A DNA stretch of 20,625 nucleotides, taken from assembly GCF_000485595.1 (NCBI RefSeq), contig NW_014577111.1, positions 138,173-158,797 on the forward strand, read 5' to 3'. The position numbers and the translations under genes were made by a program. This document shows, piece after piece, positions 370-17,946 of this stretch. Origin of the DNA: Priapulus caudatus. Its lineage: Eukaryota > Priapulida > Priapulimorpha > Priapulimorphida > Priapulidae. Within the stretch, counting starts at the first letter, position 1. Every line of letters starts with the position of its first letter. The notes beneath the pieces are model-generated. The model was not told the origin of the DNA and ran no database searches. It saw nothing but the letters and a program-made list of their open reading frames with translations.

Positions 370-408
370 CAAGAGTGCATAATAGAGATCTATAGATATG
401 CACTCTTG
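370..408. mobile_element. micro-palindrome insertion 1 (39 bp, 7-bp TSD)
   Basis: The element starts CAAGAGTGCATA and ends TATGCACTCTTG, giving 12 perfectly paired bases and a 15-bp centre that can pair further with a bulge. It is flanked by an exact 7-bp direct repeat, ATAATTT, at 363-369 and 409-415, as expected for a target-site duplication. It belongs to the same family as the copies at 1046, 6128, 8001, 8811, 13321 and 17922. It is far too short to encode anything, so any movement must be driven in trans. Superfamily is unknown. Confidence 0.8.
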
Positions 409-415
409 ATAATTT

Positions 416-1038
416 TAACCTGTAACAAATACGCCTTATCGCGGGGAATTTTGCGTTTTTCAGGGGCTGTATTGATTTTTCCCGTCGTTATTATTAGAGA
501 AGATGTAGGTAATAGATTGTGTCTCGCTCGTGAAAAGCGAGTTGCTGTATAGACGCGTGACAAAGCTCTGCTTTGACAAAGCCGATCGAAAAAGAAGCCA
601 CTTCTATATTATCACACTGATACTTTCATCTGCAAACTATTGTTTGCATGTGTTTAATCTTATTTGACGTACCGCTAGTTGCAGGAACACGGTATGGGAA
701 CCATTCCATTCATATTTTTGATTCAAGTTGAAGTGAATTCTATACAATTAATAACCAGCGGATTAAAGAACATTATAAGAAATATTAGAAAGAAATTTCT
801 CATTTCCTTCTTCCTTCATTTCTATTGACAGGATTATATTACTTATTAGTAAGCTTAGGAAAAGAAACCGAAAGAACAGGCAAATTTGTGTAGCGGTGCG
901 CAATTTTTATCTGACACGTAGTGCCATCTGTTGGGTGAATCCGCAGTAAGATAATGTATGCAGGACTAAGGCAATTTTCGTTTTTTTCCACTGTAGGTGG
1001 CAGCACATGTATAGATCTGTAATTCCCACTGAGATAAC
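416..1038. other. unique-looking AT-rich DNA, no gene seen
   Basis: I see no ORF, splice-bounded exon or tandem repeat that I can support here. The only notable signals are two CTCF-like cores near the right end, listed separately. Confidence 0.5.
920..1006. promoter_or_regulatory. pair of oppositely oriented CTCF-like motifs
   Basis: AGTGCCATCTGTTGG at 920-934 matches the reverse form of the CTCF core (RGYGCCMYCTRSTGG) at 14 of 15 positions. Sixty bases on, CCACTGTAGGTGGCAGC at 988-1004 holds a forward core, GTAGGTGGCA, with an imperfect upstream CCA spacing. The core is well known in bilaterians. Function here is inferred from the motif alone. Confidence 0.35.
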
Positions 1039-1045
1039 ATAATAT

Positions 1046-1087
1046 CAGGAGTAAGATAATATAGGAGCCTATATTATCTTACTCTTG
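1046..1087. mobile_element. micro-palindrome insertion 2 (42 bp, 7-bp TSD)
   Basis: The element is two 20-base arms around a 2-base AG centre. The left arm starts CAGGAGTAAGATAATATAGG and the right arm ends CTTACTCTTG. Nineteen of 20 positions pair; the mismatch is at position 3 (G on the left against A-type on the right). Exact 7-bp direct repeats ATAATAT lie at 1039-1045 and 1088-1094. It is nearly all stem, so cruciform extrusion should be easy. Family membership comes from the CARRAGTNN...ATAATA arm. Confidence 0.8.
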
Positions 1088-1094
1088 ATAATAT

Positions 1095-1433
1095 GACATA
1101 AAAAGATAAGCATGGTTTCATAGTTGCATCCTTTAGCTTCATGTTTTAGACTTAACAAAATTGAGCGGTGACTTAATTTTATTTAGCAGTGATCACCTGT
1201 GTTTCAAATTGTCTTCTTGCTCGCAGATAACGATATAATGACTATATATATATAGGCTAGGCTCCAACATGTCTACGTATACTCAGTGCGCCAGTGTTCC
1301 TAGTGCTGACGATACATATCTACACATAAGTATAATAAGTATATATACAACCTGATAAGTGTGTGACTGACTGGTAATATCAGGGTGAAAATAACATATG
1401 TGCGTGCATTGTTTTATTTTATCGTGACTGCAG
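1095..1433. other. AT-rich DNA, no gene seen
   Basis: Mostly AT-rich sequence with a short TATATATATA run near 1242. Its right end (about 1400-1433) is pyrimidine-rich and ends in CAG, which could serve as the acceptor of the exon candidate that follows. Confidence 0.4.
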
Positions 1434-1705
1434 TAAGAGATCTAGAAGAACATCAGGGTGAAGGCCGTCGTAAAAACGTAATTATAAGACATGAAGTTAG
1501 CTTTACTTACGATTCGCTGGTGAGGGAAGAATTGCGTGAATTCGACTTTGGCGACAGATCGAAATCGCTGTCCGACCGGTAGAGGAAGGATTCCCGACGC
1601 GTCGGTGGGAAGTTAGACAGAACCAATCCGGACCCGGGGCTGGATCCATCCAGGGGACTCCTGCCTGGCGATGCGCCATTCTCAACGTCAAAACTGAAAC
1701 AGCAG
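1434..1705 (+). pseudogene. exon-like island, possibly frameshifted; product unknown
   Basis: This stretch is richer in GC than its surroundings and is bounded by a good acceptor (T-rich tract then GACTGCAG, ending 1433) and a strong donor (GCAG|GTTAGT, GT at 1706-1707). No single frame spans it. One frame is open to a TAG at 1580-1582 and reads charged sequence such as LEEHQGEGRRKN and [18 protein letters not shown] second frame opens at 1536 and stays open to the donor, with [19 protein letters not shown]. The two overlap by about 45 bases, which fits a frameshift in a decayed exon or two alternative readings. I recognise no family. It could also be chance in a GC-rich patch. Confidence 0.25.
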
Positions 1706-2879
1706 GTTAGTGCAAAGTTATTAAATGTGAACAGATGCCAAATAATTATCATCAACTTATTAAACATGAACAGGCATTAAGTATGATCTGGTATCAAATC
1801 ATTATCATCACGCAAATCACATTATAGATAGCAACTGTTTATAATTATACAATGAACACATTCGGACTAAATTGAACTAATCGAATGCAAATAATGGTAC
1901 ACGCAACATAAACTCTCAAAAGGTTTGAGAGAGATCAAGAGTCAAACGAATATAGTTTTCACGTGAATCACTGCTTCCACAGTAAATATCAATACCGACC
2001 GGTAGATGGCATGCACATAGTATCATAGTATTACACTCATCGTAACCTGAGAATGATTGTACACACTGATTGTACTCCGCTGTACGATCACGTTATAAAC
2101 AGCCTGCCGCTATTCTAATTATGATTTTTGTTTTGCTAAAACCCTTAAGCGCCAAATCAAGCCAATCTTTTCAAACTTTGCAGTGCGTTCTCCGCATTCA
2201 ATCAGCTTGCGATCAGAGCCACGACTGAATCACAATTCTGCACGTCAAATCTGAGTCAGACGTCATGCAGCGAGATTAATTGCAGTTGCCTACGTCTAAG
2301 AACTTTTGGGAACAATCAAGTGAACACTGACTGTTTATTGGTTAATAAAATCACTCGTTTATTTTTTATTAAAATCACCTTCACTTCACGAGAAGAAGTC
2401 GTGAACACCAATTACACGTTTTCCGCATATTAAAGCGACGTGCCAAGAATGTAAAATGCGCGATATAACGGCGTATGATTAAATTGCAACGCGAATGAAA
2501 CGGACACATGTAGGACGGATGTATTTTCGTTTACGTGACGTTTATGGAACATAAATATCATCTTGATAAGGAAACATCGATTCACCACACGCTGCGCTCA
2601 GTCAGGGACTTTAGAATCGTACTAGATAGAGTTACCGAGACCTTTCCTTGACCGGATTTTATTATCCACACGATATATCAAACGTAACATCGACGAAAGT
2701 AAACGCAACAGTTGCCGCCTTGCCGCACTCATTCGTCTTGCTTTGCTTACACGCCCCTCTCTTTGTTGTTTGCATATAGACATTCATATATCAAAAAGAA
2801 AGCGCTTGCAACGCACGCGCCGTGGGCGCTCTGTTGTTATACTGCCTTATCGAATAACCTCCAACAAACGCGGGCATAC
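1706..2879. other. unique-looking DNA, no gene seen
   Basis: No supported gene or tandem array. One CTCF-like half, GTAGATGGCATG, lies at 2002-2013. CTCAAAAGGTTTGAG at 1915-1929 is a short hairpin. Open frames near 2700-2930 are short, unbounded by splice signals and run into the MITE that follows. Confidence 0.45.
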
Positions 2880-2884
2880 ATTAT

Positions 2885-3396
2885 CAGGAGCGGATCCAGG
2901 GCTGAAGCTAGACAGTATTTTTCAAGATTTTAGGGGCACATCCCCCAAAAAGGGCACACCACCCCCCCAGTGGGCGCCGTAAGGCGCGGACGCACATGGC
3001 GGGGGGTCTGGGGGACCTCCCCGAGGAAATTTCAAATTTTCAAGGGTCCCTGGGCACAAAATTTGAGCACACATTTCAAGCAAGTCATAGTCAAGCAGCA
3101 ATAGCTAAAAACCATATGGAATTTTATTTCTGCTTCATTTTGTCTGCGCTTGCATACCAGCAATTAATGCAGAATGATTCAAGCACTCCCCTTCTTTTTC
3201 AGATATGAAAGCTAGTTTTGTTACCATGTAAAATTTTGATTCTCTTCAAGGAATCAGAAGAAAAAGAAAACAAATAAAGAATATAGCCAAATTCCATCAA
3301 TTTGTTTCTGTATATTTTAGCGCAAAATTTCGAAGGGCACTTTGAAATCTAGACCGTATTTCCCAATACGGCAAATACGGTCTGAATCCGCCCCTG
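2885..3396. mobile_element. hAT-like MITE (512 bp), TIR CAGGRGCGGATYCAG
   Basis: The left end reads CAGGAGCGGATCCAGG and the right end is the reverse complement of CAGGGGCGGATTCAGA, so 13 of the first 15 positions match. A 5-bp direct repeat ATTAT flanks it (2880-2884 and 3397-3401). If the ends are taken as TCAG/CTGA the duplication could instead be TTA, which would suggest PIF/Harbinger. The CAGGGGCGGATCCAG end and a 5-bp duplication fit hAT5-type elements best; this is from family knowledge. No transposase is encoded. Next to the right end, AGACCGTATTT at 3351 pairs with AAATACGGTCT to form a subterminal hairpin. Confidence 0.65.
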
Positions 3397-3401
3397 ATTA
3401 T

Positions 3402-3727
3402 AGCGCTGCAGTGCTTTCCTTAGCGGTAGAGGGAGAGAGTGTGGGATAGAGGATTGTGACTGTGATATATATTCACCCTAGCTCCCACATCCATGCATGG
3501 TTGATGCATGCAGGCGCGGGGATAGGGAAGGGTTGGAAGGGGAGCGAGAGGAGAGGGTAGACATTATCGGTAACCATGAACAAGAGCCGCAGAGCGACTG
3601 GGCTCATCTGAGGTCTGCTTCTACGGTTATAAACGTGACATTTAAGTCATGCGTAGTGACACCTTTGTTAGGCGCAGATATGCAGATACGCAGTTGCGTA
3701 CACATCATTTCAGCAAACATTTATTGC
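3402..3727. other. no gene seen; purine-rich to the right
   Basis: The sequence shifts from mixed composition to a GA-rich stretch (GGGAAGGGTTGGAAGGGG near 3523). An open frame from 3497 runs straight into the GA microsatellite, so it is treated as chance. Confidence 0.45.
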
Positions 3728-3838
3728 AGAGAGAGAGAGAGCGAGAGAGAGGAAGAGAGAGAGAGGGGGGTGAAAGAGAAAACGAGAGAGAGAGAGAGAG
3801 AGAGAGAGTGCGGGCGAGAGGAGAGAGATGGAGAGAGT
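3728..3838. repeat. (GA)n microsatellite, interrupted
   Basis: Interrupted GA dinucleotides, with the longest pure stretch near 3784-3809. The arginine/glutamate open frames across it are simple-repeat translations. Confidence 0.9.
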
Positions 3839-4000
3839 CAGTCAGACTAAATTGTTTATAAACAAATAACACCCACGCGGCGCGCTACTGTATCAGTTAC
3901 GTTATCGATTGAAATGTACATTCCGATTTCGCCGCGCGGCGTCCAAACTTTCGACGAAGATGGCCGGCAGAGATAAGGCAGACGCACGTATAATGTACAG

Positions 4001-4169
4001 ATTTCTTCAATCTCGTGGAGGATCAACACATTTCGACTGACAGTCAACCATCGGGCTCTGCAGCGTCCACAAGCCAGCATGCTCCACCATATCCCGACAT
4101 TGCACACTACTGTAACGTCGACGGAGATAGCCATGCCAAGGACAGTACAAAACTGGCAAGTTTTCATTG
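4001..4169 (+). CDS. candidate internal exon, product unknown
   Basis: A 169-bp stretch sits between an AG (GTACAG, ending 4000) and a good donor (CATTG|GTAGGT, GT at 4170). One frame is open throughout and has coding-like composition: FFNLVEDQHISTDSQPSGSA, then polar sequence ending STKLASFH. The upstream tract is a poor polypyrimidine tract, which weakens the call. The 155-residue open frame on the opposite strand over the same DNA has no recognisable domain. A TISU-like GAAGATGGCCGGC (ATG at 3960) precedes it, but that ATG frame stops after 26 codons. This may be a decayed exon or chance. Confidence 0.2.
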
Positions 4170-4518
4170 GTAGGTTTGACGATTCATTTATGCAATTACT
4201 TATCTCAAGATTGGTTAAACTGAAGTTAAGAAAGTAATTATTTCTGCACTTTTGAGCGCAATATACATTTGACCTATCCTGCCGGGACATTCTTCTCACT
4301 CTGTTCCGATAGATGGCGTGCATACTGACTAGGTGCAGGGATTAGATAATCCGAACTAGTTGCTATCTCCGTTTAGCCCATGCTGTGATAGGCGTGTACA
4401 GTAGTACGCTCGCCTAACCTGTATGATACAGGCGGTTCCGGTTTCACTTCACTACACTAACCGCCTGTACCCCTCAATGCTTCTTCAGCCCGCTTTGCGA
4501 ACGAAGAAATCATCGCGC
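4170..4518. other. no gene seen; one short inverted repeat
   Basis: TACAGGCGGTT at about 4428 and AACCGCCTGTA at about 4460 form an 11-bp inverted repeat with a 21-bp loop and no flanking direct repeat. AGATGGCGTG at 4311 is a CTCF/YY1-like core. Confidence 0.4.
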
Positions 4519-4610
4519 CCAATCAGAGAGCTGTAACAGGCCGATCAGCCAATCAGCGAGCAGGCTTTTGCCTGACGTCATTTCTCAAGTTATTCAAGTT
4601 GAATTTATAA
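4519..4610 (+). promoter_or_regulatory. promoter-like cluster: two CCAAT boxes, CRE, TATA-like box
   Basis: Two identical CCAATCAG boxes (4519-4526 and 4549-4556, 30 bp apart) precede a perfect palindromic CRE, TGACGTCA, at 4573-4580. TTTATAA lies at about 4603. The order and spacing resemble a CREB/NF-Y-type promoter firing rightward, with a start expected near 4635. NF-Y binds CCAAT and CREB/ATF binds the CRE; both are general metazoan knowledge. No clear first exon follows, so the target gene is unknown. Confidence 0.4.
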
Positions 4611-4857
4611 CTGCAATTAGTGCACGCTTCTGCCAAAGCCATTAACTAGATTGTTTCCATTCATCAGGTATTCGCCTGGTACGAAGTTTTGCCGTATTTA
4701 CTTCTGTACGCTCGATTGCTCGCCGCTAATCAGATTCCCCGCCATAACAACCGGTTGATCAATAACGAGGCTTGCGAACCGCCAGGGTTGAGCTCGCGTA
4801 CAGGTGGTTATATAGTGTAGCGAAGTGGAACATAAAGCGTGTATCATACAGGTTCAT

Positions 4858-4898
4858 GCTCGCCCGAAACTGGACGCTCCTAAGTGCGCATGCGCGCA
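4858..4898. repeat. left arm of a 41-bp perfect inverted repeat (partner 6261-6301)
   Basis: GCTCGCCCGAAACTGGACGC... at 4858-4898 is the exact reverse complement of 6261-6301, about 1.36 kb away, with weaker matching (CTCTTGTTT) beyond. The arm contains the perfect NRF1-type palindrome GCGCATGCGC at 4886-4895. The enclosed DNA holds a telomere-block element and an AT-rich satellite. It may be a composite transposon or an inverted duplication of a CpG-rich promoter fragment. Confidence 0.7.
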
Positions 4899-5130
4899 TG
4901 CTCTCTTGTTTTTCTCTTGTTTTTTTTTGTTTGAATTTTGTTTTGCAGGGTCGTAGGAAATAGTAGCCATGCTCTTTTGTTTTCTTTTTGTTTTGCCTTG
5001 TAACCTGACACACATAACACAGTCTTACTAACTTACTACATTGCAAATTGTTTCAATCAAATGTTTCCATGAGTGACCGGGTTGGCCGCCATGATTGTTT
5101 ATTGCGACCGTTTTCGATGGTTGAGGTTAT

Positions 5131-5421
5131 ATCACACCCCTCACAGCAGGTCCTATCCCAGAAACCCCCGCAGCCTACGCCCTACTCCCTAACCCTAACC
5201 CTAACCCTAACCCTAACCCTAATTAAATTTAATTAACACTAATAAATGTAATTAAATTTTAAAAAAACCACCTTCAGACGTAAGGTTCGCCGCCTTACCA
5301 GCTCGGCTATTCATCGATATTGTAATTATACATTATGGATGTGCCATGCATACATGGATGTGCGTGCATGTGATTGGTCGGTGCGGTGGTTTCTGGGATA
5401 GGCTGCTGTGAGGGGTGTGAT
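5131..5421. mobile_element. inverted-repeat element enclosing a telomeric block (A)
   Basis: The left arm, 5131-5172, starts ATCACACCCCTCACAGCAG and pairs with 5382-5421, which ends CTGCTGTGAGGGGTGTGAT. About 38 of 41 positions match. The 290-bp unit contains six CCCTAA copies followed by a TAATTAAATTTAATTAA-type AT-rich spacer. No target duplication is evident beyond the palindromic ends, so the exact termini are uncertain. The related end sequence GGGGTGTGATATTAC recurs at 5816-5830. Confidence 0.65.
5187..5222. repeat. interstitial telomeric repeat (CCCTAA)6
   Basis: Six perfect CCCTAA units. TTAGGG is the ancestral metazoan telomere repeat. It lies inside an inverted-repeat element rather than in bare flanking DNA. 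Confidence 0.95.
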
Positions 5422-5825
5422 CAAACTGCATGCAGTGCCCCTTCGCTCACTCAGGATACCACTGCCACAATGCTAGCACTATTTTTAAAGTGAGCGGAGC
5501 TCGGCGGAAATCGTAAACAGAATGGAATACAATCGAATGGAGATTCGTAAACAGCGTATGATTTGAACAAGGTAAATGGGCGCACAATCCGCGTACTATT
5601 TCGTATCACTATTTTATCAATTATTTTATGAAATAACGGTCGGATTTTTAATATCTTTGCAACTTTTATTAGTCCAAATCTTATTACATAGAATACGAGT
5701 AACGTGCCTGCTGTAAAACTTGTAGTTAAAAAGGCGTTACAAATTGTAACCGAAATCTAATTTTGGCAGTGGTAGATTTAGCCCATGAGCGAGAGCGCCA
5801 TCTGTCGTGGAGTTTGGGGTGTGAT
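5422..5825. other. no gene seen; one CTCF-like site
   Basis: Unique-looking DNA. AGCGCCATCTGTCGTGG at 5794-5810 is a good CTCF-like core. The rest shows no repeat or coding signal that I can support. Confidence 0.4.
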
Positions 5826-6120
5826 ATTACCATAGATATCATATAACAACCTGTATCATAATCATATGATCGTATAACACATAATCACATATATCATATA
5901 TCATAATCATTATATAATCATATAATATTAATAATGATATCATATAATCATATAATATATGATAATGATATCATTATCATATATAATCACATATAACACA
6001 TAATAACATATAATCACATAATCACATAATCACATAATCGTATTATAATCATTATGTTATCATTATGTTGATCATAGATCATACGCATAGATCATAGATG
6101 TTGTTATATGATATCAATGG
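5826..6120. repeat. AT-rich cryptic satellite (ATCATATA/ATAATCAC)
   Basis: Variable reiterations of ATCATATA, ATAATCAT and CACATAAT fill almost 300 bp with no fixed period. GATATTAC occurs at both edges (5823 and 6120), the right copy being the target duplication of the palindromic insertion that follows. Confidence 0.7.
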
Positions 6121-6127
6121 ATATTAC

Positions 6128-6173
6128 CAAGAGTAGATAATAACACATTATTATGTGTTATTATCTACTCTTG
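6128..6173. mobile_element. micro-palindrome insertion 3 (46 bp, 7-bp TSD)
   Basis: A 21-base arm (CAAGAGTAGATAATAACACA plus T), a TATT centre and the perfect reverse complement. The 7-bp direct repeat ATATTAC lies at 6121-6127 and 6174-6180. The arm shares CAAGAGTAGATAATA with the family and then diverges to ACACAT, yet both halves still pair without a mismatch. Confidence 0.85.
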
Positions 6174-6220
6174 ATATTACCCTAACCGTTTTCGATGGGA
6201 GAGATGCGCAGATGACTACT

Positions 6221-6301
6221 GCGCATGCTGCGCATGCGCCCTTGCAAAACAAGAGGCGCCTGCGCGCATGCGCACTTAGGAGCGTCCAGTTTCGGGCGAG
6301 C
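6221..6301. promoter_or_regulatory. NRF1-type palindrome cluster and right arm of the 41-bp inverted repeat
   Basis: GCGCATGCGC occurs at 6230-6239 and 6264-6273, with a partial GCGCATGC at 6221. Position 6261-6301 is the reverse complement of 4858-4898. Palindromic GCGCATGCGC is the NRF1 consensus and typically marks CpG promoters in animals. The CGTTTTCGATGG motif just upstream (6187) also occurs at 5108 in the same orientation. The role here is inferred. Confidence 0.4.
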
Positions 6302-6779
6302 GTCCAAATACTACGGTACAGGCTATCAGAATAATGATACTGTTGATTTATATGCTCTGCTATCAGCCACCCACCTGCGAGGTAGGCATATTTATAGTTG
6401 GCCTTAATCAAAAACAGACGTTTGCGTAAGTGCTATTGACATTGTATTCCTAACGTATAGAATCTCCAGAGAATGAAGTTCATATATGATTTAAGGCGCG
6501 TAAACGTTGTTCAAGTAAGTTTTGCATGCAGAATTTCACTGTGAAATTTAAGTCTTCCACGATCACACAATTACTATCAAACACAGTTCAGTCCTTTGTT
6601 AACAGTCAACAAATCCATGTTTAACCCTCCTCTTGAGGGTCAAAAGGTTATCAGACACTTACTCTTCGCACGTCAGTGGAAAGCACATTTCATGGTTCTT
6701 TCAATAAAGTGATAAAAATGGTAGGTCAGCTCTGAAACAAAAAAGTTTTTCACTCTGTCCATTAGGCCATGTCCTCAGA
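6302..6779. other. no gene seen
   Basis: Unique-looking sequence. A short self-complementary run, CCTCTTGAGG at about 6630, is the only local structure noted. Confidence 0.4.
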
Positions 6780-7199
6780 AAATGCCTGATATCTGACCTT
6801 TCCCTCACTGCCCTTTAACCTGTGACCTCAAATTTCGCACTGGTGATGGGTTTCCTGCCCTTCACACTATACACCGAATATTAAGAGCAAGGTATTTATA
6901 TGGTCAAGCCGTTTAGATTTGTGCCGCAATTCCGTATTTCCTCCTATACCTTAAGTTAAGGGGGAAATATTCCCCCTCCGTTGACACATCTTGACTGTTG
7001 ACCCTTGACCCCTCAAATTGGTCATCCCGAGTCCTTTTCACGATCCCCCCCCCGACGTCCCGAATATCGTAACCGTACGTCGAGCGGTTAAGATTTGTGC
7101 CCAACTGTTGATGAACGGACGCACGGACGCACGGACGCCCGGACGCACGCTCATGCGATTCTACAAGCTGCATCTGACTTCGACAGATGAGCTAAAAAT
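6780..7199 (+). repeat. probable interspersed repeat with 3' hairpin and A tail
   Basis: The region has features of a SINE or non-LTR 3' end: clusters of TGACC-type pentamers (TGACCTTT, TGTGACCTC, TTGACCCTTGACCCC), a short tandem (GGACGCAC)n at 7116-7150, and a terminal hairpin, AGCTGCATCTG / CAGATGAGCT (7166-7193), followed by AAAAA. The hairpin-plus-A tail is typical of LINE-mobilised elements. No A/B boxes or reverse transcriptase frame are visible. The left boundary is uncertain. Confidence 0.35.
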
Positions 7200-7862
7200 G
7201 CATACTAGGCTCATTGATTATGCAATGTTGACGAATGCTAGAGTAACTGGCACCTTGTGTAGTTAATAAGTACATAACCTTATAGCCAAACGCGTATTAG
7301 TTTGTCCAATATCACTGCTGGTTACACTACAAACAAGACTTGAAATCGGTTGTTGATATGTATCAACGTATCATTTACATGCCGTAAATGTCATCCAGGA
7401 GTCAAGCGATGACGTAAACATTTGTGCGGCCCGTATGTTTTGGACGCCAGATGAAATGGAGGTGTCAGCGGTGTAACCACGGCCATGGACTAAACATGAA
7501 AATGGAGTAAAACACACGTACTAATCACGGACGCACGTGGACAGCCCTGACAAAAAGTTATTTATCACGAGCGTACATGTTTACGAAATCACTGATGATA
7601 GCATTGCGTACGGCCGAGCATGCGTGCGAAAATGTCCTGTGCACTATAAATCTGTATCACACCCGCTTCGCCGGCAGCGGTTTGAAACTGTAAACAACTG
7701 ATTTTTGGACTGCGAATTTTAATTAGACATTTCTTAGTAACCAGCAGTGATGTTGGCCAAACTAATACGCGTTTGGATGTAAAGTTATGTACTTATTAAC
7801 TACACAAGGTGCCAGTTACTCTAGCATTCGTCAACATTGCATAATCAATGGACCTAGTATGC
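7200..7862. mobile_element. long-TIR element (arms about 125 bp)
   Basis: The left arm (7200-7325, starting GCATACTAGG) is the reverse complement of 7738-7862 (ending CCTAGTATGC) at roughly 93% identity with no large gap. The spacer of about 410 bp has no transposase and no long ORF. Weak pairing continues a few bases outward (GCTAAAAAT against a GCTTAAAG-type partner), so the ends and any target duplication are unclear. It fits a foldback or long-TIR MITE. The left arm abuts the A tail of the preceding repeat. Confidence 0.75.
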
Positions 7863-8000
7863 CTTTAAGCCGATACGATGCTTACGTCACGCCTTTGCCG
7901 TTATACGTCACGCCATTCACATCTCTGTGCAGGTGGTCGCCACGCAGCACTTGCCGACACAGATTGCAATGTATACAGAAATAACGTGCACGTATAATGT

Positions 8001-8072
8001 CAAGAGTACATAATAGAGACGCGATGGGACGCGATGACATAATCGAGACGAGATCACTATTATGTACTCTTG
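8001..8072. mobile_element. micro-palindrome insertion 4 (72 bp, 7-bp TSD)
   Basis: Sixteen-base arms, CAAGAGTACATAATAG and CTATTATGTACTCTTG, pair perfectly. A 40-bp unpaired centre contains a 9-bp direct repeat, GACGCGATG. Direct repeats ATAATGT lie at 7994-8000 and 8073-8079. The centre is unrelated to those of the other copies, showing that only the outer arm and the duplication are shared. Confidence 0.85.
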
Positions 8073-8141
8073 ATAATGTGTATAATATCGTTTATAAATA
8101 GCAGGCATATGTAGACGCGAGCATACGTAGGCAGCAATTAA

Positions 8142-8219: not shown

Positions 8220-8269
8220 CAGCAACAATAGCCATGCAGCGACAACGATTTGTCACTGGCTATATATAG

Positions 8270-8335: not shown

Positions 8336-8365
8336 CTGTTTACGCTACTCTTTGTCAGTATCAGA

Positions 8366-8398: not shown

Positions 8399-8431
<33 letters not shown>

Positions 8432-8769: not shown

Positions 8770-8810
8770 AACACGAAATTGTTTTTTAATTGACTCACGG
8801 TTGATATTAT

Positions 8811-8891
8811 CAGAAGTAGATAATAGGTACCCCCCCCCCTATCCCCTATATCCCCTATAGGATAGGTAGGATTCCCTATTATCTACTTCTG
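8811..8891. mobile_element. micro-palindrome insertion 5 (81 bp, 7-bp TSD)
   Basis: Seventeen-base arms, CAGAAGTAGATAATAGG and its exact reverse complement, enclose a C-rich centre (nine Cs, then CCTATCC...GGATAGG), which can fold further. Direct repeats ATATTAT lie at 8804-8810 and 8892-8898. The arm outer sequence, CAGAAGTAG, is shared with the copy at 17922. Confidence 0.85.
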
Positions 8892-8929
8892 ATATTATTT
8901 TAGCACCTGAACGTGTCGCTGGATGCAGC

Positions 8930-10498: not shown

Positions 10499-10515
10499 TT
10501 ATCTCCCTTTTCCCC
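10499..10515 (-). other. polypurine tract
   Basis: On the minus strand this reads GGGGAAAAGGGAGATAA and abuts the 3' LTR exactly, the position of the plus-strand priming site in LTR elements. It fixes the element orientation. Confidence 0.75.
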
Positions 10516-11033
10516 AAAACGATGACTACCCTGTCATCGATTCAGCGTCCTCGCTGATCTACACTTCAACCTAAACCTAAACAATTCCAAAAAAATTACT
10601 ACCCTAATATCTTCCTAACTCAACCCAACGAGAGAAACGTCTTTCTGTCCGATTAAACAACCCACAATCAATACACAAACATAACAACAATCAAAATACA
10701 ATAAGAAAACACATATGAAGCGTAGAAAACAAGTAACGATAAAGTTCGATCACAATACAAGTCAGAATCTCCACACATTTGGCAGTAAACATTTTGATAT
10801 CGCTGCAATTACTCTCACTCTTGCGTCTTTTTTATGCTGTAACCATCGTGGCGTATGCGTGTACCGACACGCATTACCGAAACCACGTTTCCAACCATGT
10901 GCCCCATTATAGCAGGAGTCTGATTATATCCTCATAATCCCATTAACGCACACAGGGGCATTAATAAACACAGCACTGATGTGGTACTTTGTCACTTCCA
11001 CACATCATACAGCCAACAAAAATCATCATATAT

Positions 11034-11093
11034 CATCCATCATACATCATACATCATACATCATACATCATACATCATACATCATACATCATA
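11034..11093. repeat. (CATCATA)n heptamer array
   Basis: Seven or more near-perfect CATCATA units lie inside the LTR element interior. They are bracketed by AGCCAACAAAAAT on the left and AGCCAACAAAAATACGC on the right, a short direct repeat. Confidence 0.85.
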
Positions 11094-11745
11094 TACAGCC
11101 AACAAAAATACGCAAAACTGATTTCATATTTTCGATGAAATGTTTTTGGCCTATAATCAAACTCTAATTGAAGAATGTGTTTTAGCGGGCTGACAATATA
11201 GTGTAAACGTACCGTTACGACAACTTTAAAAAAAACGTACATACAAACAACCATAAACCTACATACATACATACATGCATACATACAATGTCAGGTAAGT
11301 TTCTGAAACAACTGTATCGGCCTTCATTATTATAAATATTGTTCCGCTCCTCAAGTAGTCAATAAGCATCTCAATAACATAACCTGCACCTTTTGGATAA
11401 GGGATAAGACACATGGTGCATGTGTATACAGGCAAAGTGCTTGAGTATTTCACTATCACCTTGTATATTATACGCTGTGGTTTAAAACTTTCGTTTTTAA
11501 CTTTACTTACGACTATATGCCGACACAGTTTGTTTCACTCACCCATTTTAAGTATTTCCGTCTCGTTCATCTCTTGCGTTCTTGTTCCGTTCGTGTGACT
11601 GCATCCTTCTCTTCCTTCGTCGGAATCTATTCTTCCTTTCTCGTCCTTCTCCTCTCCGTTGACAAGCCTTGGCGACGCGGCGGCAGCAACGGTCCTCCTT
11701 CTCCACGATCTCCAGCCGATCCTCGTCGCCATCGTCATTGTCGTC

Positions 11746-11983
11746 GGCGCTAGCGCAGTCTGGCTCCCATCTCATCATCATAACTCGCTCTTTCCGTCCC
11801 TTTCTCCCACTCTCGCTCTCCGTCATTCTTCCTCTGTTTCGTTGCTGGCCCGTAGATCGATATAGTGTTTCGGCTATACTCTCTCCTATCTCGTCATCGG
11901 AACTCGCTCTTTCCGTCCTTCTCTCCCTCTCTCGCTCTCCGTCATTCTTCCTCTGTTTCGTTACTGGCCCGTAGATCGATATA
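11746..11983 (-). repeat. 119-bp tandem duplication in the LTR element leader
   Basis: The block ending GGCCCGTAGATCGATATA near 11863 repeats 119 bp later, ending near 11982. The pyrimidine-rich CTCGCTCTTTCCGTCC and GTCATTCTTCCTCTGTTTCG pieces match with few changes. The minus-strand open frame over it (11548-11826) is basic low-complexity sequence without a recognisable capsid or zinc-knuckle motif. Confidence 0.8.
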
Positions 11984-12030
11984 ATAAAGTAACTTTCGTT
12001 GTGTTCGCAAAGGGATACCCAGGTTTTGGA

Positions 12031-12045
12031 CTGTCACGGCAACCA
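12031..12045 (-). other. primer-binding-like site
   Basis: On the minus strand TGGTTGCCGTGACAG begins three bases after the 5' LTR ends, matching the TGG complement of a tRNA CCA tail. The tRNA species is not assigned. Confidence 0.65.
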
Positions 12046-12048
12046 AAA

Positions 12049-12512
12049 TGTAAACAGGGATGAGCGTTCATGTAGAAATGATGAAGTAGATCCATTTCCA
12101 GAACTTGTGTGGTAAACTGTATAACCTTTAATATCTTACACACATCACATCTCCTTACACACAGACAAAGACCCGCGCACACGCGCGGTTGCGCGTGTGC
12201 CTCCTTCCGCGACCAGAACCAGAATCCTTCCTCCTCCTCTTACATCTCTCCTCTATATATTCCCCCCAAAACTCCTCCAAACATCTTGCACGTTCTCATT
12301 CATGTACCCGTTCTCCCAGACCGCATCCTACCCCCATTTCACAATTACCCTAGAAACTGCCTAACCTAAAACCCGCTTATCCAACTCCCTGTAACATCAA
12401 TGTAGCCGCCCAATATGCGCGACGCTGCGTCTACACAGACTAACTGGTCACCAAACAACCCTAGTCTAGCCTCCTGACTAATTCATGTAACACGTGCAAA
12501 ACACATGTTACA
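12049..12512 (-). repeat. 5' LTR
   Basis: Begins TGTAACATG at 12512 and ends TGTTTACA at 12049 on the minus strand. It contains a hairpin, CACGCGCGG / GCGCGTG-type, near 12180-12199, exactly where similarity to the other LTR changes from near-identity to weak. The right end, TGTAACACGTGC...CATGTTACA, is itself an inverted repeat. Confidence 0.8.
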
Positions 12513-13508
12513 ACAGTAAGACATGATAATAAGACATGACAATAAGACATGACAACAAGACATTACAATTCGACATGATAATAAGACATTACAACAAGAC
12601 ATTACAATTCGACATGATAATAAGACATTACAACAAGACATTATAATTCGATATGATAATAAGACATTACAACAAGACATTACAATTCGACATGATAATA
12701 AGACATTACAACAAGACATTACAATTCGACATGATAATAAGACATTATAACAAGACATTACAATTCGACATGATAATAAGACATTACAACAAGACATTAC
12801 GATTCGACATGATAATATGACATTACAACAAGAAATTACAATTCGACATGATAATAAGACATTACAACAATACATTACAATTCGACATGATAATAAGAAA
12901 TTACAACAAGAAATTACAATTCGACATGATAAGAAGACATTACAACAAGACATTACAATTCGACATGATAATAAGACATTACAACAAGACATTACAATTC
13001 GACATGATAATAAGACATTACAACAAAACATTACAATTCGACATGATAATAAGACATTACAACAAGACATTACAATTCGACATGATAATAAGACATTACA
13101 ACAATACATTACAATTCGACATGATAATAAGAAATTACAACAAGAAATTACAATTCGACATGATAATAAGACATTACAACATGACATTACAATTCGACAT
13201 GATAATAAGACATTACAACATGACATTACAATTCGACATGATAATAAGACATTACAACATGACATTACAATTCGACATGATAATAAGACATTACAACATG
13301 ACATTACAGTTCGATATGATCAAGAGTGCATAATAGATTATCTATTATGCACTCTTGATATGATAAGAAGACATTACAACAAGACATTACAATTCGACAT
13401 GATAATAAGACATTACAACAAGACATTACAATTCGACATGATAATAAGACATTACAACAAGACATTACAATTCGACATGATAATAAGACATTACAACATG
13501 ACATTACA
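12513..13508. repeat. 39-bp minisatellite with 234-bp higher-order repeat
   Basis: About 24 copies of ATTACAATTCGACATGATAA plus a 19-base second half (TAAGACATTACAACAAGAC). Units differ by a few variants: ACAACATGAC, AGAAATTACAACAAGAAATT, ACAATACATT. The ACAATACATT plus AGAAATT pair occurs at about 12871 and again exactly 234 bp later (six units), evidence of a block duplication. Because 39 is a multiple of three and neither strand holds a stop, long open frames exist on both strands (13-residue repeats MSCCNVLLSCRIV and TLQQDITIRHDNK). Coding is unlikely. The array starts one base after the LTR element. Confidence 0.95.
13321..13357. mobile_element. micro-palindrome insertion 6 (37 bp, 7-bp TSD) inside the minisatellite
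   Basis: Two 18-base arms, CAAGAGTGCATAATAGAT and its exact reverse complement, around one T: a perfect hairpin. Direct repeats ATATGAT lie at 13314-13320 and 13358-13364. Removing the element and one repeat restores an ordinary 39-bp unit (TTCGATATGATAAGAAGACA), so the ends and duplication length are defined by the host array rather than guessed. This is the strongest single copy. Confidence 0.92.
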
Positions 13509-13982
13509 ATACTATAATTCGTCGTGATAATTAATCGACATGGCAATAAGACAACTCACACGACGTGGTATTATTCCCTAACGCGTGTATTCTCCCGGTG
13601 CTATACACGCGGATGGTTATAGCCCATTAATTAGTACTTCCCATTAGCGACTAATCAAAATAAATACTGACATCTCCATTCATACCAGGCTCGTCGTTAT
13701 ATATACATGACGATTTGACGCCCGCTCACTCTCGGCAGCAACACCGACACTGCACATGCTATAGTCCGCATCACCCTCATGTGAATGAAATCGACCAGCG
13801 CTCCTGTATATCGCGCGCGGGGGACATGAAAAACAAGTAAATCTCGCACTAGCACGTGTGTAACGGTGTAGTGCTGTAAACAACATAGACAAGATGAAGT
13901 ATCACATCGTGTCACTGTGTATAATCACATTCTTATCACATCGTCACCGTGTCACGAGATATGAATATATACGTGATGCTGA
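13509..13982. other. no gene seen; one CpG hairpin
   Basis: CGCGTGTAT at 13582-13590 pairs perfectly with ATACACGCG at 13603-13611 over a 12-base loop. ATCACATCGT recurs around 13902 and 13935. Minus-strand frames (13680-13915) are short and unsupported. Confidence 0.45.
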
Positions 13983-14002
13983 GGAAGAGAGATAGAGAGA
14001 GC

Positions 14003-14080
<78 letters not shown>

Positions 14081-14371
14081 GAGAGGACGAGGACAGAAGA
14101 AGAAGAAGGAGGAGGAGCAGGAGGCGGAAGAGTAGGAGGCGGAGGAGGAGGGGAGGAAGAGTAGGAGCAGCAGCAACAACAAAGAGGAAGAAGAGGAAGA
14201 GGGAGGTGAAGAAGAAGAAGAAGACGAAGAAGAAGAAAAAGAAGAAAACGAAGAAGACGAAGAAAAAGTAGTAGCAGGAGCAAGAGAAGGAGTAGGAGGT
14301 AGGCGGGTATGTATGTATGTAGACAGGTGGGTAGGTATGTAGATAGGTAGGTATATAAAGTAGGCAGATAT
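13983..14371. repeat. (GA)n-(GAA/GAG)n-(GTAG/GTAT)n compound microsatellite
   Basis: Pure GA to about 14078, then AAG/GAG trinucleotides to about 14290, then GTAG/GTAT tetramers to 14371. The long leucine/serine-rich minus-strand frames and the lysine/arginine plus-strand frame are repeat translations. Confidence 0.95.
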
Positions 14372-14939
14372 ACCTGTAGTCTGTCTTCCTCAGTGAGGGC
14401 AGGCGCTGCAATCCCAGCCTACGATGACGCCGCTGCCACAGCGTACGTACCGCGTTGTCACCCAGAGCAGGTTGGTTCGGTGACGGTGACTCCCTGACCG
14501 CAGGCAACCACAGGCAACCATAAGCAACCGCAAGCAACCACAGGCAATATTACTACACTCAGCTACACAAACTCTGGTAGCGAAGCGGCCAGTGGTGGAG
14601 ATAGCGGCCCGTACTCCCCCACAGGCTAGGTCCCATTAGACTGGTTGGGATTTATGGGATTTGCTATCTGTTATGTTGAAGAAATTAAAAACTTCGAAAT
14701 TAGGGGGGGGGGACGTTGTCAAACGTTATTAGTCTTAAAATTAGTGTTAACATTAGCTTATTCTAGTAAACCGGACCTCCACACAATGCGTATGAGAAAC
14801 TCCGTAACTTCACCGCGTTTCTACCAACGGTCTATTAGAAAAAGTTTATGTTAAGACTAATTACGTTTCTGACAACGGTACCACTGGACTCGCTTGGGGG
14901 GGGGCTTAATTTCCAAAACTGGCAACGCACGCGTATCGA
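14372..14939. other. no supported gene; decamer tandem at 14501-14550
   Basis: Five copies of CAGGCAACCA and variants lie at 14501-14550. GTAGCGAAGCGGCCAGTGGTGG at 14578 faintly resembles a tRNA A box but no cloverleaf follows. G-runs at 14703 and 14897 are mononucleotide tracts. Confidence 0.45.
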
Positions 14940-15174
14940 ATCGATTACGTCATCGATCATTGATTATCATATCATATTATTTGAATTACGATTTATATCA
15001 TATGAAGCAGGTAGCCTTGTACATAGGTAAGCCGTCGGTGAATGAGACGTGATGTACGTGAGAGTTGACAATCATGAAAATTATAAATCTGTTGTGAATT
15101 TGTTATTGTTTTGCAGACAATCGTTACGTTTTAGTCGATTATCAGAGCTATTTCTGGGAGCGATTTCATGGTGG
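14940..15174 (+). CDS. candidate spliced exon pair, product unknown
   Basis: A donor, ACATAG|GTAAGC (GT at 15027), and an acceptor, TTGTTATTGTTTTGCAG (ending 15116), bound a 90-bp candidate intron. Joining them in phase gives a frame reading YHMKQVALYIDNRYVLVDYQ and continuing SYFWERFHGG, ending at a TAG at about 15175; a donor, GGTG|GTTAGT, also lies there. The composition is protein-like, especially in the second exon, but the first exon has no defined left end and I cannot assign a family. It may be chance. Confidence 0.22.
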
Positions 15175-15366
15175 TTAGTTATTGACTATTGATGATTGAT
15201 TATTGATTATTACTTATGAAGATATATACAGTTACTTGTGAAGGAACATCCATGTATCATGTGTTGAATAGAAAAATCAGGTCATGCACTCTTCTATACC
15301 AGACCGACAAAAAGACAACTCTCAACTGAATGTTCACTGCTGCCGCTGTCGCCACCGCTGCTGCTA

Positions 15367-15391
15367 CTGCTGCTGCTGCTGCTGCTGCTGC

Positions 15392-15440
<49 letters not shown>
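15367..15440. repeat. (CTG)9(TTG)15 trinucleotide repeat
   Basis: Nine CTG then fifteen TTG. On the minus strand this is (CAA)15(CAG)9, a potential polyglutamine run of 24, flanked by another CAG cluster (15453-15466). In that frame a TAA (15439-15441) and a TAG (about 15364) bracket the tract, each one transition from a glutamine codon. It is therefore not an intact polyQ gene as read here. Confidence 0.92.
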
Positions 15441-15576
15441 ACCGCTGCGGCGGCTGCTGCTGCTGCAACAATTTTTTTTTACTGTTAACGCAGCTGTTAT
15501 TGATGTTACTGATACTGCCATCGGCGCAACTTTAAATGCCCTCCCACATAGCGCTCATTCCCGTACAATACTGTAT

Positions 15577-15728
15577 GTTGTACTCTCTCTCTCTCTCACT
15601 ATCTCTTTCTCTATCTAACGACCCTCTCTCTCTCTTTCTCTCTCTCTCCCTCGTTCTCCCCTCTCTCTATCTCTATCTCTATCTAACGACCCACTCCCCC
15701 CCTCTCTCTCTCTCTCCCCTGACTCTCG

Positions 15729-15767
<39 letters not shown>
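15577..15767. repeat. (CT)n microsatellite, interrupted
   Basis: CT dinucleotides with two copies of the interruption ATCTAACGACCC (15614 and 15681), pointing to an internal duplication. Confidence 0.92.
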
Positions 15768-15769
<2 letters not shown>

Positions 15770-16294
15770 CTCGTGAGTCAACGATTAATCATTAATCGTA
15801 TAGCGGACATCTAACCTGCTGGTAATTACATTGTACATGACAACACACGGGCGGTGAGCAACAGGGTATGAAATAGCAAAATGCAGGCAAGAGCTTCAAT
15901 CGAGGATTAATGCTGAACAGTGAACCCGCGACCTGCATTCATCAAATAACATCGATTCCCGCAAACATAGGCAGGCATCCTATTATTAACACGTTTCCTT
16001 GCTCACATAGCTTGACTCTACGTTGACTGCACACATTTCCTTATTTCATTAAAAAGTCAGGAAATAGAAGTTAATCCTTTCTCCAGCGCGTGAAAGGGTC
16101 ACGCCCGTCAACTATTCTATACGTCTCAATATGAAGTGCATTTAGCTTAGCGTAATTGAAACTCAATAGGTTAACTGCGAAAGTAAAACGCTGGTCACGT
16201 GGGCTCGTGCCATTAGAGAAAACCTAAAAACATTATTGATCAAAAACAGTACAAAAGGCATCTAGATTCCAAACGTTCTGCGATCATCCCCTAG
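15768..16294. other. no gene seen; upstream of terminal-exon candidate
   Basis: Unique-looking DNA. GAACCCGCGACC at about 15920 resembles the complement of a tRNA T-arm but lacks a partner A box. The right end, TTCTGCGATCATCCCCTAG, is the acceptor of the next feature. Confidence 0.4.
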
Positions 16295-16543
16295 CTGCTT
16301 GCTGTCGCGGACATCCAAGCCAGCAAATCTCTATATTTAGCCTCAATCCGACGAAAAACTCTCCCACCAAACCGGAAAAAAAAACGGGAAAGTTTTGATA
16401 TTGATATCTCTGATGGCAGGCGATTTCTTAACATACACGAGTATGAACTCATTTCCGTGAATGAATCCGATTCCGCGAATGATGATGACGAAGTTGAAAC
16501 CGTATCGTCTATCAACAACGGACCAGAGAGTAGATTTAATTAG
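16295..16543 (+). CDS. candidate C-terminal exon, product unknown
   Basis: Starting right after a CCCCTAG acceptor, one frame is open for 82 codons to a TAG at 16541-16543. It reads LLAVADIQASKSLYLASIRR, then a basic stretch (PPNRKKKRES), FDIDISDGRRFLNIHEYELI, and an acidic serine-rich tail (NESDSANDDDEVETVSS). The basic-then-acidic organisation and polar C-terminus look like a real intracellular tail. It has no ATG, so it must be a downstream exon. AATAAA lies 170 bp after the stop. The two minus-strand open frames over the same bases are shadows. No family recognised. Confidence 0.45.
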   Translation: MLAVADIQASKSLYLASIRRKTLPPNRKKKRESFDIDISDGRRFLNIHEYELISVNESDSANDDDEVETVSSINNGPESRFN

Positions 16544-16712
16544 GTATGGCGGAAGTTTGAACATCACATAAAACAAACCGGCGGGAAAATATGATTGTAT
16601 TTTTGTTGTTTTTATCCTTATTCTTTTCTCTTTATCTTAGCCGATTTTTTTACACGACGTGCAAACGTATAAACGTTGAGCCACATGTCGCTTCACTTAA
16701 GTCATGTTAAAT

Positions 16713-16718
16713 AATAAA
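16713..16718 (+). terminator. poly(A) signal AATAAA
   Basis: Canonical hexamer 170 bp after the stop of the 16295-16543 candidate, in AT-rich 3'-UTR-like sequence. Confidence 0.4.
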
Positions 16719-16836
16719 GTTACTTATCAGTTCAGCGAGAAATCTTCAGAAAATATATACCAGAGTAAACTTGTGGATTAATTGTCATAGTTTTTGTGTG
16801 GACCGATTCGGTTACGAGTAGGCACAGGGCATTTAA

Positions 16837-17005
16837 CATAACATAACATAATATAACATATAAACACACGGCGCGCCGATTCCATCGTTACATTTGTGTG
16901 AGTACTCCGTGTTAAGTAACGTAGCAAAACTAGATCTGCCACACTGCCTATATATATTGTATATAATATATATTGTATATACTATATATATATATATAAT
17001 ATGTA
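16837..17005. repeat. (AACAT)n and TA-rich low-complexity DNA
   Basis: ACATA pentamers at 16837-16862 and TATATATTGTATATAATATA-type repeats at 16950-17002 flank about 90 bp of mixed sequence. Confidence 0.7.
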
Positions 17006-17019
17006 TTGTTTCATTACAG

Positions 17020-17254
17020 ACATGCACCGGCCTCTACAGCGAGAAAGGGCCCAGCGACATCTAACGGCGCTGCTATAATCACCATGGTAACCAGCCGGGT
17101 AAACAGCTTGTCTTCGGTACAGAAGCGTCCGCGCCACAAACACACGACGTACGGAATGTCATTCCACGCAAAAAAAATATCGGCCGTATCAGAAAGCGGC
17201 GGTACCTATCATAGATTATTACAAGGTTTTGTTGACACACAGAGTTTCACCTGA
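17020..17254 (+). CDS. candidate terminal exon, product unknown
   Basis: A good acceptor (TATTGTTTCATTACAG, ending 17019) opens a frame of 77 codons from the CAT at 17021 to a TGA at 17252-17254. It reads HAPASTARKGPATSNGAA, then VTSRVNSLSSVQKRPRHKH, and ends YHRLLQGFVDTQSFT. GC content is higher than in the AT-rich flanks. AATAAA follows at 17339-17344. Another frame after the same acceptor gives a short tail (CTGLYSEKGPSDI then stop), so the true phase is uncertain. It could be an alternative 3' end of the gene at 16295 or a separate gene. Confidence 0.38.
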
Positions 17255-17338
17255 TGAGAACACTACTGCCGCAAGATTAGAAATCATAGATATGCTGTCA
17301 GTGCTGTATACTTTGTAATTATCAGAGAACATCAAAGA

Positions 17339-17344
17339 ATAAAT
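17339..17344 (+). terminator. poly(A) signal AATAAA
   Basis: Hexamer 85 bp after the TGA of the 17020-17254 candidate. It abuts an (AT)n tract, so chance is possible. Confidence 0.35.
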
Positions 17345-17371
17345 AATATATATATATATATATATATATAT

Positions 17372-17421
17372 CAGGGGTTAACATTAACAAATTTGACATA
17401 TTTGTCATTATTAACCCCCTG
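17372..17421. mobile_element. palindromic insertion 7 in (AT)n (50 bp)
   Basis: CAGGGGTTAA at the left and TTAACCCCCTG at the right are inverted with a one-base length difference. The inner ACAAAT...ATTTGT also pairs. It splits an (AT)n tract, so ATATAT on both sides is consistent with a duplication whose length cannot be measured. It shares CA...TG ends with the CARRAGT family but not the arm, so it may be a different family. Confidence 0.55.
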
Positions 17422-17914
17422 ATATATATATATATAGGAATGATTAATAGCATGGAATATCAAAGAATATATAGAAAGAGATAGATATATAGCGCTGACA
17501 TCAGAGTATATCAGAGAATGTGTTGATACGGAAGTACGCTAGCAGGTGTAAGATAGTGAGCAGTACATCGTCGATATGCCGTGGCTTTGCCTCCCCCGCC
17601 ACACGTAGACACGCAGAGAGAGAGAGAGAGACGTGCAAAGACTCGTTAGCACAATAATAGCAGAGTTGTGAATTAGTCCTATTCCTAAATCTTTAGGATC
17701 TGCTAATGAGATGGTGAACGTTCTCATAGCAGCGTCGCTGGTGAGCGTACGCCAGCGCCATCTACCGTCAATGCACTAAGCCGTCTGTTTCGTGTAATTT
17801 GAGCCGAGTATCGGGTTGGGTTTGAAATCTGTTGGCATAATTCTCGGTAACGAATGTATGAGTCTAAAAGCGGAATATCGGTTCGCGGATAATAAGCCCG
17901 TGGTAAATAGGTCG
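17422..17914. other. no gene seen; short (GA)n and CTCF-like site
   Basis: (GA)n at 17616-17631. AGCGCCATCTACCGT at 17754-17768 resembles the CTCF core. No coding signal supported. Confidence 0.4.
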
Positions 17915-17921
17915 CTATTAT

Positions 17922-17946
17922 CAGAAGTAGCTATTATCTACTTCTG
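17922..17946. mobile_element. minimal micro-palindrome insertion 8 (25 bp, 7-bp TSD)
   Basis: CAGAAGTAG, then CTATTAT, then CTACTTCTG: nine-base perfect arms with a 7-base loop. Exact direct repeats CTATTAT lie at 17915-17921 and 17947-17953. Relative to the copy at 8811 it looks as if ATAATAG has been lost from the left arm only, leaving the right arm (CTATTATCTACTTCTG) whole. The loop therefore equals the target duplication. It is the smallest copy in the window. Confidence 0.85.

What the first reader, a model, noticed from the sequence alone, without database searches (positions are those of the whole stretch)
370..17946. A family of 25-81-bp palindromic insertions with exact 7-bp target duplications
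Seven insertions (370-408, 1046-1087, 6128-6173, 8001-8072, 8811-8891, 13321-13357, 17922-17946) share CA...TG ends, a CARRAGTN outer arm, and perfect 7-bp flanking repeats: ATAATTT, ATAATAT, ATATTAC, ATAATGT, ATATTAT, ATATGAT, CTATTAT. Seven exact independent 7-bp duplications cannot be chance. The elements are almost pure hairpin and up to ten times smaller than typical MITEs. The ends do not fit the hAT YARNG rule (position 5 is A), and 7-bp duplications are uncommon among known superfamilies. One copy per about 3 kb implies a very large genome-wide population.
Basis: partly seen in the sequence, partly recalled or inferred. Interest (0 to 1): 0.88.

Follow-up and report, generated by a model that had tools for sequence, protein, structure and literature searches.

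The report
Excision scars of P-like transposons
The tiny palindromes are probably not miniature jumping genes but healed wounds left where larger P-like jumping genes were cut out, each keeping up to the first 19-20 letters of both ends, so this genome holds well over a thousand natural records of DNA-break repair.

Summary
In detail: all seven elements and their exact 7-bp duplications are present. One lies inside a 39-bp tandem array whose other units show the empty site: removing the element plus exactly 7 bp restores the repeat. The reading as a family of miniature MITEs is probably wrong. Genome-wide, one strict pattern gives 1528 such palindromes in 385 Mb, against 0 for the reversed control. 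Longer elements (380-882 bp) carry the same ends; in the 11 read, 7- or 8-bp duplications flank them and the inverted repeats run on past nt 20. In most palindromes the shared end stops there: in one subfamily 787 ends match 20 nt, 291 match 22, 273 match 26. Paired ends are bimodal in size (38-104 bp versus 380-882 bp), with a peak at exactly two ends joined flush. Middles are short deletions or fillers that tend to copy the arms. This is the anatomy of P-element excision junctions in Drosophila, where transposase leaves 17 nt of each end (PMC2895639). Best explanation: end-joined excision scars of P-like transposons that cut 19-20 nt inside their ends. No transposase was tied to these ends.

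The parts
370..408 (.). scar 1, 39 bp; subfamily end CAAGAGTGCATAATAGAGA; left arm keeps 19 nt, right arm 12
   Evidence: parental end of this subfamily read (nt 20 is A there, so the T that one search counted as a 20th kept base is not parental)
363..369 (.). 7-bp target duplication ATAATTT, left copy (right copy 409-415)
1046..1087 (.). scar 2, 42 bp; presumptive subfamily end CARGAGTAAGATAATATAGG kept 20/20 (one mismatch between the arms), middle AG; parent not read
1039..1045 (.). 7-bp target duplication ATAATAT, left copy (right copy 1088-1094)
6128..6173 (.). scar 3, 46 bp; end CAAGAGTAGATAATAACACA kept 20/20, middle TTATTA; long pairs with this end elsewhere (380 and 836-882 bp)
6121..6127 (.). 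7-bp target duplication ATATTAC, left copy (right copy 6174-6180); it lies inside the right 8-bp repeat GATATTAC of the 5831-6119 element
8001..8072 (.). scar 4, 72 bp; presumptive end CAAGAGTACATAATAGAGA kept 19/16, filler of 37 nt containing an internal repeat (ACGCGATG twice, counting one arm base); parent not read
7994..8000 (.). 7-bp target duplication ATAATGT, left copy (right copy 8073-8079)
8811..8891 (.). scar 5, 81 bp; presumptive end CAGAAGTAGATAATAGGGAA kept 17/20, filler of 44 nt with CCCCTAT repeats; parent of this exact variant not read
8804..8810 (.). 7-bp target duplication ATATTAT, left copy (right copy 8892-8898)
13321..13357 (.). scar 6, 37 bp; end CAAGAGTGCATAATAGAGA kept 17/17, middle TTA
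13314..13320 (.). 7-bp target duplication ATATGAT, left copy (right copy 13358-13364)
12518..13510 (+). 39-bp tandem array whose other units give the empty site of scar 6
17922..17946 (.). scar 7, 25 bp; presumptive end CAGAAGTAGATAATAGGGAA kept 9/16, joined without filler; parent of this exact variant not read
17915..17921 (.). 7-bp target duplication CTATTAT, left copy (right copy 17947-17953)

Best explanation
Each palindrome is the healed site of a cut-and-paste DNA transposon of P-like type. A 380-900-bp non-autonomous element inserts into an AT-rich palindromic target (consensus ATAWTAT in the window) and duplicates 7, sometimes 8, bp. Later the transposase excises it: one strand is cut at the element's end, the other 19-20 nt inside the inverted repeat, just before a second RGAGT motif. 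Both chromosome ends therefore keep 19-20 nt of the repeat. End joining (flush, by microhomology, with trimming, or with filler copied from the arms) seals them into duplication + 20 nt + junction + 20 nt + duplication, a 40-bp palindrome in the simplest case. Shown: insertion with duplication, shared ends, sharp stop at nt 20, bimodal sizes, fillers that on the whole resemble the arms. Inferred: the cutting event, the P-superfamily identity of the enzyme, and the repair pathway.
For: Empty site in the tandem array. 1528 palindromes, control 0. In 63 hairpins of 25-81 bp the arm match (one early mismatch allowed) never exceeds 21 nt, and 4 of 63 reach 21; 0 of 100 ends of the 50 hairpins listed carry the motif RRAGYG at nt 21-26. 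End counts 787, 291, 273 at 20, 22, 26 nt for one subfamily. Facing pairs with both ends exact among the first 100 places listed for each of three subfamilies: 54 short (38-104 bp), 21 long (380-882 bp), none between 105 and 379; 22 of 54 are exactly two ends flush. Junctions of 11 of the 21 long pairs read: the repeat continues past nt 19/20 on both sides in 11 of 11, duplications exact in 10 of 11 (six 7-bp; four 8-bp, two of these in AT repeats), one 8-bp with one mismatch. The subfamily whose second motif starts one base earlier has its flush peak at 38 rather than 40 bp, with no pair of 40. Fillers match their arms more than shuffled fillers: summed longest match 123 versus 84.1, 8 of 19 with p at most 0.05. 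Drosophila P excision junctions have the same anatomy with 17 nt (PMC2895639, section 7 read). 64 matches to the P-transposase RNase H domain in this genome, one 827-aa frame with five P/THAP9 domains (solved P transposase matched at 2.8e-23).
Against: No autonomous element with these ends was shown. The transposase contig that was read (L036) shows no matching pair of ends, though the contig ends there. One parental end lies about 5.4 kb from a P-transposase fragment on C467, but about 0.15 such facing coincidences are expected for this subfamily alone and its other end was not found; by eye no other listed end lies within 10 kb of a match. The retained length is 19-20 nt, not the 17 of Drosophila P. 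11 of 19 fillers do not exceed shuffles at p 0.05. Whether long fillers are unique in the genome was not tested. 60, 44 and 46 of the three sets of 100 listed ends are unpaired; they may be trimmed scars or parents with one altered end, and were not examined one by one. The parents of window scars 2, 4, 5 and 7 were not read.
Confidence: 0.83

Rival explanations
1. The 38-40-bp palindromes are themselves mobile, the smallest known transposons, moved by a transposase in trans; their tips later vary because palindrome centres are unstable.
For: Identical 40-bp copies exist at separate places (L001, L002, L007, L008), each with its own 7- or 8-bp duplication; unique fillers could also arise after insertion.
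Against: Arms end where the parental repeats read have their second motif, and the flush size shifts from 40 to 38 bp with that motif. A duplex this short can hardly bend to pair its ends (general knowledge). Fillers up to 44 nt with internal repeats fit break repair better.
Confidence: 0.08
2. They are ordinary MITEs made by extreme internal deletion of longer elements and then amplified as such.
For: They share ends and duplications with longer elements.
Against: Copies do not share interiors apart from flush joins; breakpoints cluster at nt 20 rather than anywhere in the element; no pairs between 105 and 379 bp among 75; each of the three subfamilies tested has a flush peak at twice 19 or 20 nt.
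Confidence: 0.05
3. Scars as in the best explanation, but of a transposase that is not of the P superfamily (a variant of the best explanation, so the odds overlap).
For: No transposase is tied to the ends; retained length differs from P; the ends resemble the Drosophila P terminus (PMC2895639 Table 1) only in the first CA.
Against: 7/8-bp duplication mix, CA ends, palindromic target and a long staggered cut are each recorded for P-superfamily members (PMC4168063, PMC3276498, PMC7776569, PMC2895639; passages or one section), and a P transposase with an intact long frame is present.
Confidence: 0.17

Closest known systems
Drosophila P-element excision junctions (P{wa} repair products, PMC2895639 Table 1, section read)
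   Same: Duplication, up to 17 nt of the left inverted repeat, microhomology or inserted (often templated) bases, up to 17 nt of the right repeat, duplication; short palindromes result.
   Different: There recovered in laboratory flies, with an 8-bp duplication; here natural, more than a thousand copies, mostly 7-bp, up to 19-20 nt kept.
Galileo and 1360 (P superfamily)
   Same: 7-bp duplications, in Galileo with rare 8 bp (PMC4168063, passages), and a palindromic target (Galileo GTANTAC; here ATAWTAT); long inverted repeats in Galileo (the 770-bp element L035:8554-9323 here has about 233 bp).
   Different: No sequence kinship of the ends was tested or shown; autonomous copy not identified here.
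Paramecium internal eliminated sequences
   Same: Very short inserts (recalled: from 26 bp) related to transposons.
   Different: TA-bounded, precisely excised, not palindromic scars (recalled; only a search listing seen).
Stowaway/mariner excision footprints
   Same: Small duplication plus short sequences from the element's end left after excision (PMC4561436, start of abstract in listings).
   Different: Only a few bases left (recalled); no palindromes of tens of bp.

Membership tests
P superfamily (the parental elements) | P/THAP9-type transposase encoded by an element with these ends | tested here: inconclusive
   64 PF21787 matches, one intact frame without these ends in reach, one parental end about 5.4 kb from a fragment on C467; no complete element shown
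P superfamily (the parental elements) | 7- or 8-bp target duplications | tested here: met
   parents: six 7-bp and four 8-bp exact of 11 read; scars: 7 of 7 seven-bp in window, 10 seven-bp and 3 eight-bp of 15 elsewhere
P superfamily (the parental elements) | terminal inverted repeats starting CA | tested here: met
   the 11 parents read start CARGAG on both sides, chosen by that end; Drosophila P starts CATGATG (PMC2895639 Table 1)
P superfamily (the parental elements) | palindromic target motif | tested here: met
   the seven window duplications on the + strand alone give ATAWTAT, itself a palindrome (letters; one search counts both strands, which is symmetric by construction); n = 7 only
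P superfamily (the parental elements) | long staggered cut leaving terminal repeat at the donor site | tested here: met
   stop at nt 19-20; inferred from scars, no biochemistry; P itself has 17
hAT superfamily | 8-bp duplication and YARNG ends | tested here: not met
Dada superfamily | insertion into small RNA genes, no terminal inverted repeats | tested here: not met
   terminal repeats here; no Rfam match in the window; Dada-U6 and Dada-U1 lack terminal repeats (PMC3706591, passages)
MITE (the hairpins as mobile families) | copies share their whole sequence, interior included (definition recalled) | tested here: not met
   63 hairpins share their ends; interiors differ except for flush or nearly flush joins

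The most novel reading that the evidence does not exclude
The scars record a transposase lineage outside the known P families whose inner-strand cut is placed by a second internal motif, 19-20 nt from the end. It excises so often without homologous repair that scars (496 ends stopping at nt 20/21 against 291 reading on, in one subfamily) outnumber the surviving elements, making excision scars a major class of dispersed repeat.
Probability: 0.17. Interest if true: 0.75.

Novelty: new variant of a known kind. Interest (0 to 1): 0.62.

Why it matters
Repeat annotation would file these palindromes as tiny MITEs. Read as scars they are more than a thousand natural, sequence-anchored double-strand-break repair junctions in one genome, with known starting ends. 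They would allow the cut position, trimming, microhomology use and templated filler of germline end joining to be measured in a non-model species, and excision to be dated separately from insertion. They also suggest that P-like excision can leave more copies behind than the elements themselves.

Tried and rejected
Autonomous element: the P transposase on C1414 (L036) shows no matching ends in the 5.4 kb read; the contig ends there. A 9.45-kb pair of parental ends on C96 was rejected because its flanks are inverted copies of one another, a duplication and not an element. The hairpin pattern with CAAGAGT ends had 0 matches in viral contigs and 0 in prokaryotic genome contigs; these are controls only, since those collections are not eukaryotic. 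The idea that the loop of 17922-17946 equals its duplication (CTATTAT) for a mechanistic reason was dropped: the right arm keeps 16 nt and the left 9, which gives that loop. RNA families: no Rfam match above the gathering scores; no tRNA. Papers: the searches listed no title or abstract start that describes genome-wide P-like scars as a repeat class; for most papers only the listing was seen, so this is weak evidence of absence. Not obtained: exact uniqueness of long fillers (never sent), duplication-pattern counts with a swapped control (not completed), the far end of the C467 candidate (not completed).
Full report
OBSERVATION. Every CARRAGT...ACTYYTG pair within 120 bp in the window (7 of 7) has such a repeat; 200 Markov shuffles gave none. 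The + strand consensus of the seven duplications is ATAWTAT, a palindrome (letters; both strands counted). The copy at 13321-13357 lies in a 39-bp tandem array. Taking out the element plus exactly 7 bp gives a unit 2 mismatches away from a neighbour; any other number of bases from 0 to 14 gives at least 8. So it is an insertion that duplicated 7 bp.

GENOME-WIDE. The window belongs to a 385-Mb assembly without a name, by its content eukaryotic. A strict pattern for 30-60-bp hairpins has 1528 places, the reversed control 0. In 20 stretches of 10 kb, taken at a fixed place on 20 large contigs, a scan without regard to subfamily (exact 7- or 8-bp repeat, 9-bp arms with at most one mismatch) finds 6 CA...TG hairpins; 5 rows have other ends, one of them a shifted reading of a CA...TG hairpin. 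In the window the same scan finds the 7 and 9 further rows, all in AT-rich repeats. Six in 200 kb is about 11,600 per genome, range about 4,200-25,000. The window, with 7 in 20.6 kb, is about eleven times richer, which is why it was noticed. Of the first 15 genome hairpins listed, 10 have exact 7-bp repeats, 2 one mismatch, and 3 exact 8-bp repeats, read by eye from the printed flanks.

ANATOMY. In 63 hairpins (50 listed, 7 from the window, 6 from fetched loci) the two arms agree for at most 20 nt, or 21 in 4 of 63, one early mismatch being allowed, although total sizes run from 25 to 81 bp. Seven of the 9 hairpins of 40 bp in this set agree over 19-20 nt per arm, six of them being perfect 20 + 20 palindromes. 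Longer ones have a middle, shorter ones have lost arm tips. The middles (from nt 19 on) of 19 hairpins of 44 bp or more match their own arms better than shuffled middles do (summed longest match 123 versus 84.1; 8 of 19 with p at most 0.05, 11 of 19 not).

PARENTS. One of the 10-kb stretches held a 770-bp element with the same kind of ends, the repeat ATAATAT, and inverted repeats of about 233 bp at 90% identity; its six-frame translations show no long frame. The end CAGGAGTAGATAATAGGGAA occurs 787 times, CAAGAGTAGATAATAACACA (subfamily of window 6128-6173) 436 times, CAAGAGTGCATAATAGAGA (window 370-408 and 13321-13357) 151 times; controls 0 in each. From the first 100 places listed for each I paired facing ends: 54 short pairs of 38-104 bp and 21 long pairs of 380-882 bp, none between 105 and 379 bp. 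One further pair at 4548 bp in the first list was left out as a chance pairing with a hairpin. 22 of the 54 short pairs are exactly two ends set flush. Both ends had to be exact and complete for this count, so pairs below the flush size could hardly be seen, and 60, 44 and 46 of the three sets of 100 ends stay unpaired. I read the junctions of 11 of the 21 long pairs (5 of 9, 4 of 6, 2 of 6). In 11 of 11 the repeat continues past nt 19/20, with the same or nearly the same sequence on both sides, in most beginning with a second RGAGT-like motif; the duplication is exact in 10 of 11, six of 7 bp and four of 8 bp, two of the latter in AT repeats.

THE CLIFF. For the first subfamily the counts fall from 787 ends at 20 nt to 291 at 22 nt and 273 at 26 nt: 496 ends stop matching at nt 21 or 22, whereas only 18 are lost over the next four bases. 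In the third subfamily the second motif begins one base earlier and the flush size is 38, not 40 (9 pairs of 38, none of 39 or 40). A search for the two motifs at parental spacing found none in the window (that pattern would miss the third subfamily's GAGTAT form, which by eye is also absent from the printed window arms). The end point is thus set by the parental sequence and not by palindrome formation. The cliff was counted in one subfamily only.

MECHANISM. P transposase of Drosophila cuts the 3' end of the element at its boundary and the other strand 17 bp inside the inverted repeat (PMC7776569, passages). Sequenced repair junctions include: 8-bp duplication, up to 17 nt of repeat, microhomology or insertion, up to 17 nt of repeat, duplication; other isolates lost nearly all of the repeat (PMC2895639, section 7 read in full; other passages). 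The hairpins here have the same anatomy with 19-20 nt. I therefore read them as end-joined excision scars of P-like transposons. The cutting, the enzyme and the repair pathway are inferred.

MEMBERSHIP. 7-bp duplications are recorded for Galileo (three copies with 8 bp in one study) and 1360, and palindromic targets for P-superfamily members (PMC4168063, PMC3276498; passages). The genome has 64 matches to the P-transposase RNase H domain; one 827-aa frame carries HTH, both RNase H parts, the GTP-binding insertion and the THAP9 C-terminal domain and resembles the solved P transposase. But no element joining such a gene to these ends was shown. On C467 a parental end lies about 5.4 kb from a P-transposase fragment, a coincidence expected about 0.15 times for this subfamily. 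hAT and Dada fail tested features. So: works like P excision (likely), member of the P superfamily (probable, not shown).

VERDICT. A confirmed observation with a different and more informative meaning: natural excision scars, in large numbers, in a genome that still holds their parents.

Noticed in passing
window 5831-6119: A 289-bp element with ends CATAGATATCATATAACA / CATTGATATCATATAACA and an 8-bp repeat GATATTAC; scar 6128-6173 sits in its right repeat, so ATATTAC occurs three times.
   Followed up: partly
window 17372-17421: Another hairpin, CAGGGGTTAACATTAACAAA..., inside an AT repeat with 8-bp ATATATAT-like sequence on both sides; possibly a scar or mini-element of another family.
   Followed up: no
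window 20447-20614: A short open frame resembling a THAP domain (PF05485, E 0.013, below the cut-off) that ends in a stop.
   Followed up: partly
window 7196-7866: Inverted repeat with 130-nt arms, 94% complementary, 411 nt apart: probably another foldback-type element.
   Followed up: no
G000 C51:56014-56712: A 699-bp parent of the 370/13321 subfamily (8-bp repeat ATATATAT) about 82 kb upstream of the window on the same contig; P elements are known to hop locally (PMC7776569, passage), which may bear on the cluster of scars.
   Followed up: partly
L008 1554-1607 and L009 2123-2161: Hairpins with further end variants (CAAGAGCTAATAATA, CAATAGCAAATAATAC): the set of subfamilies is wider than CARRAGT.
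   Followed up: no
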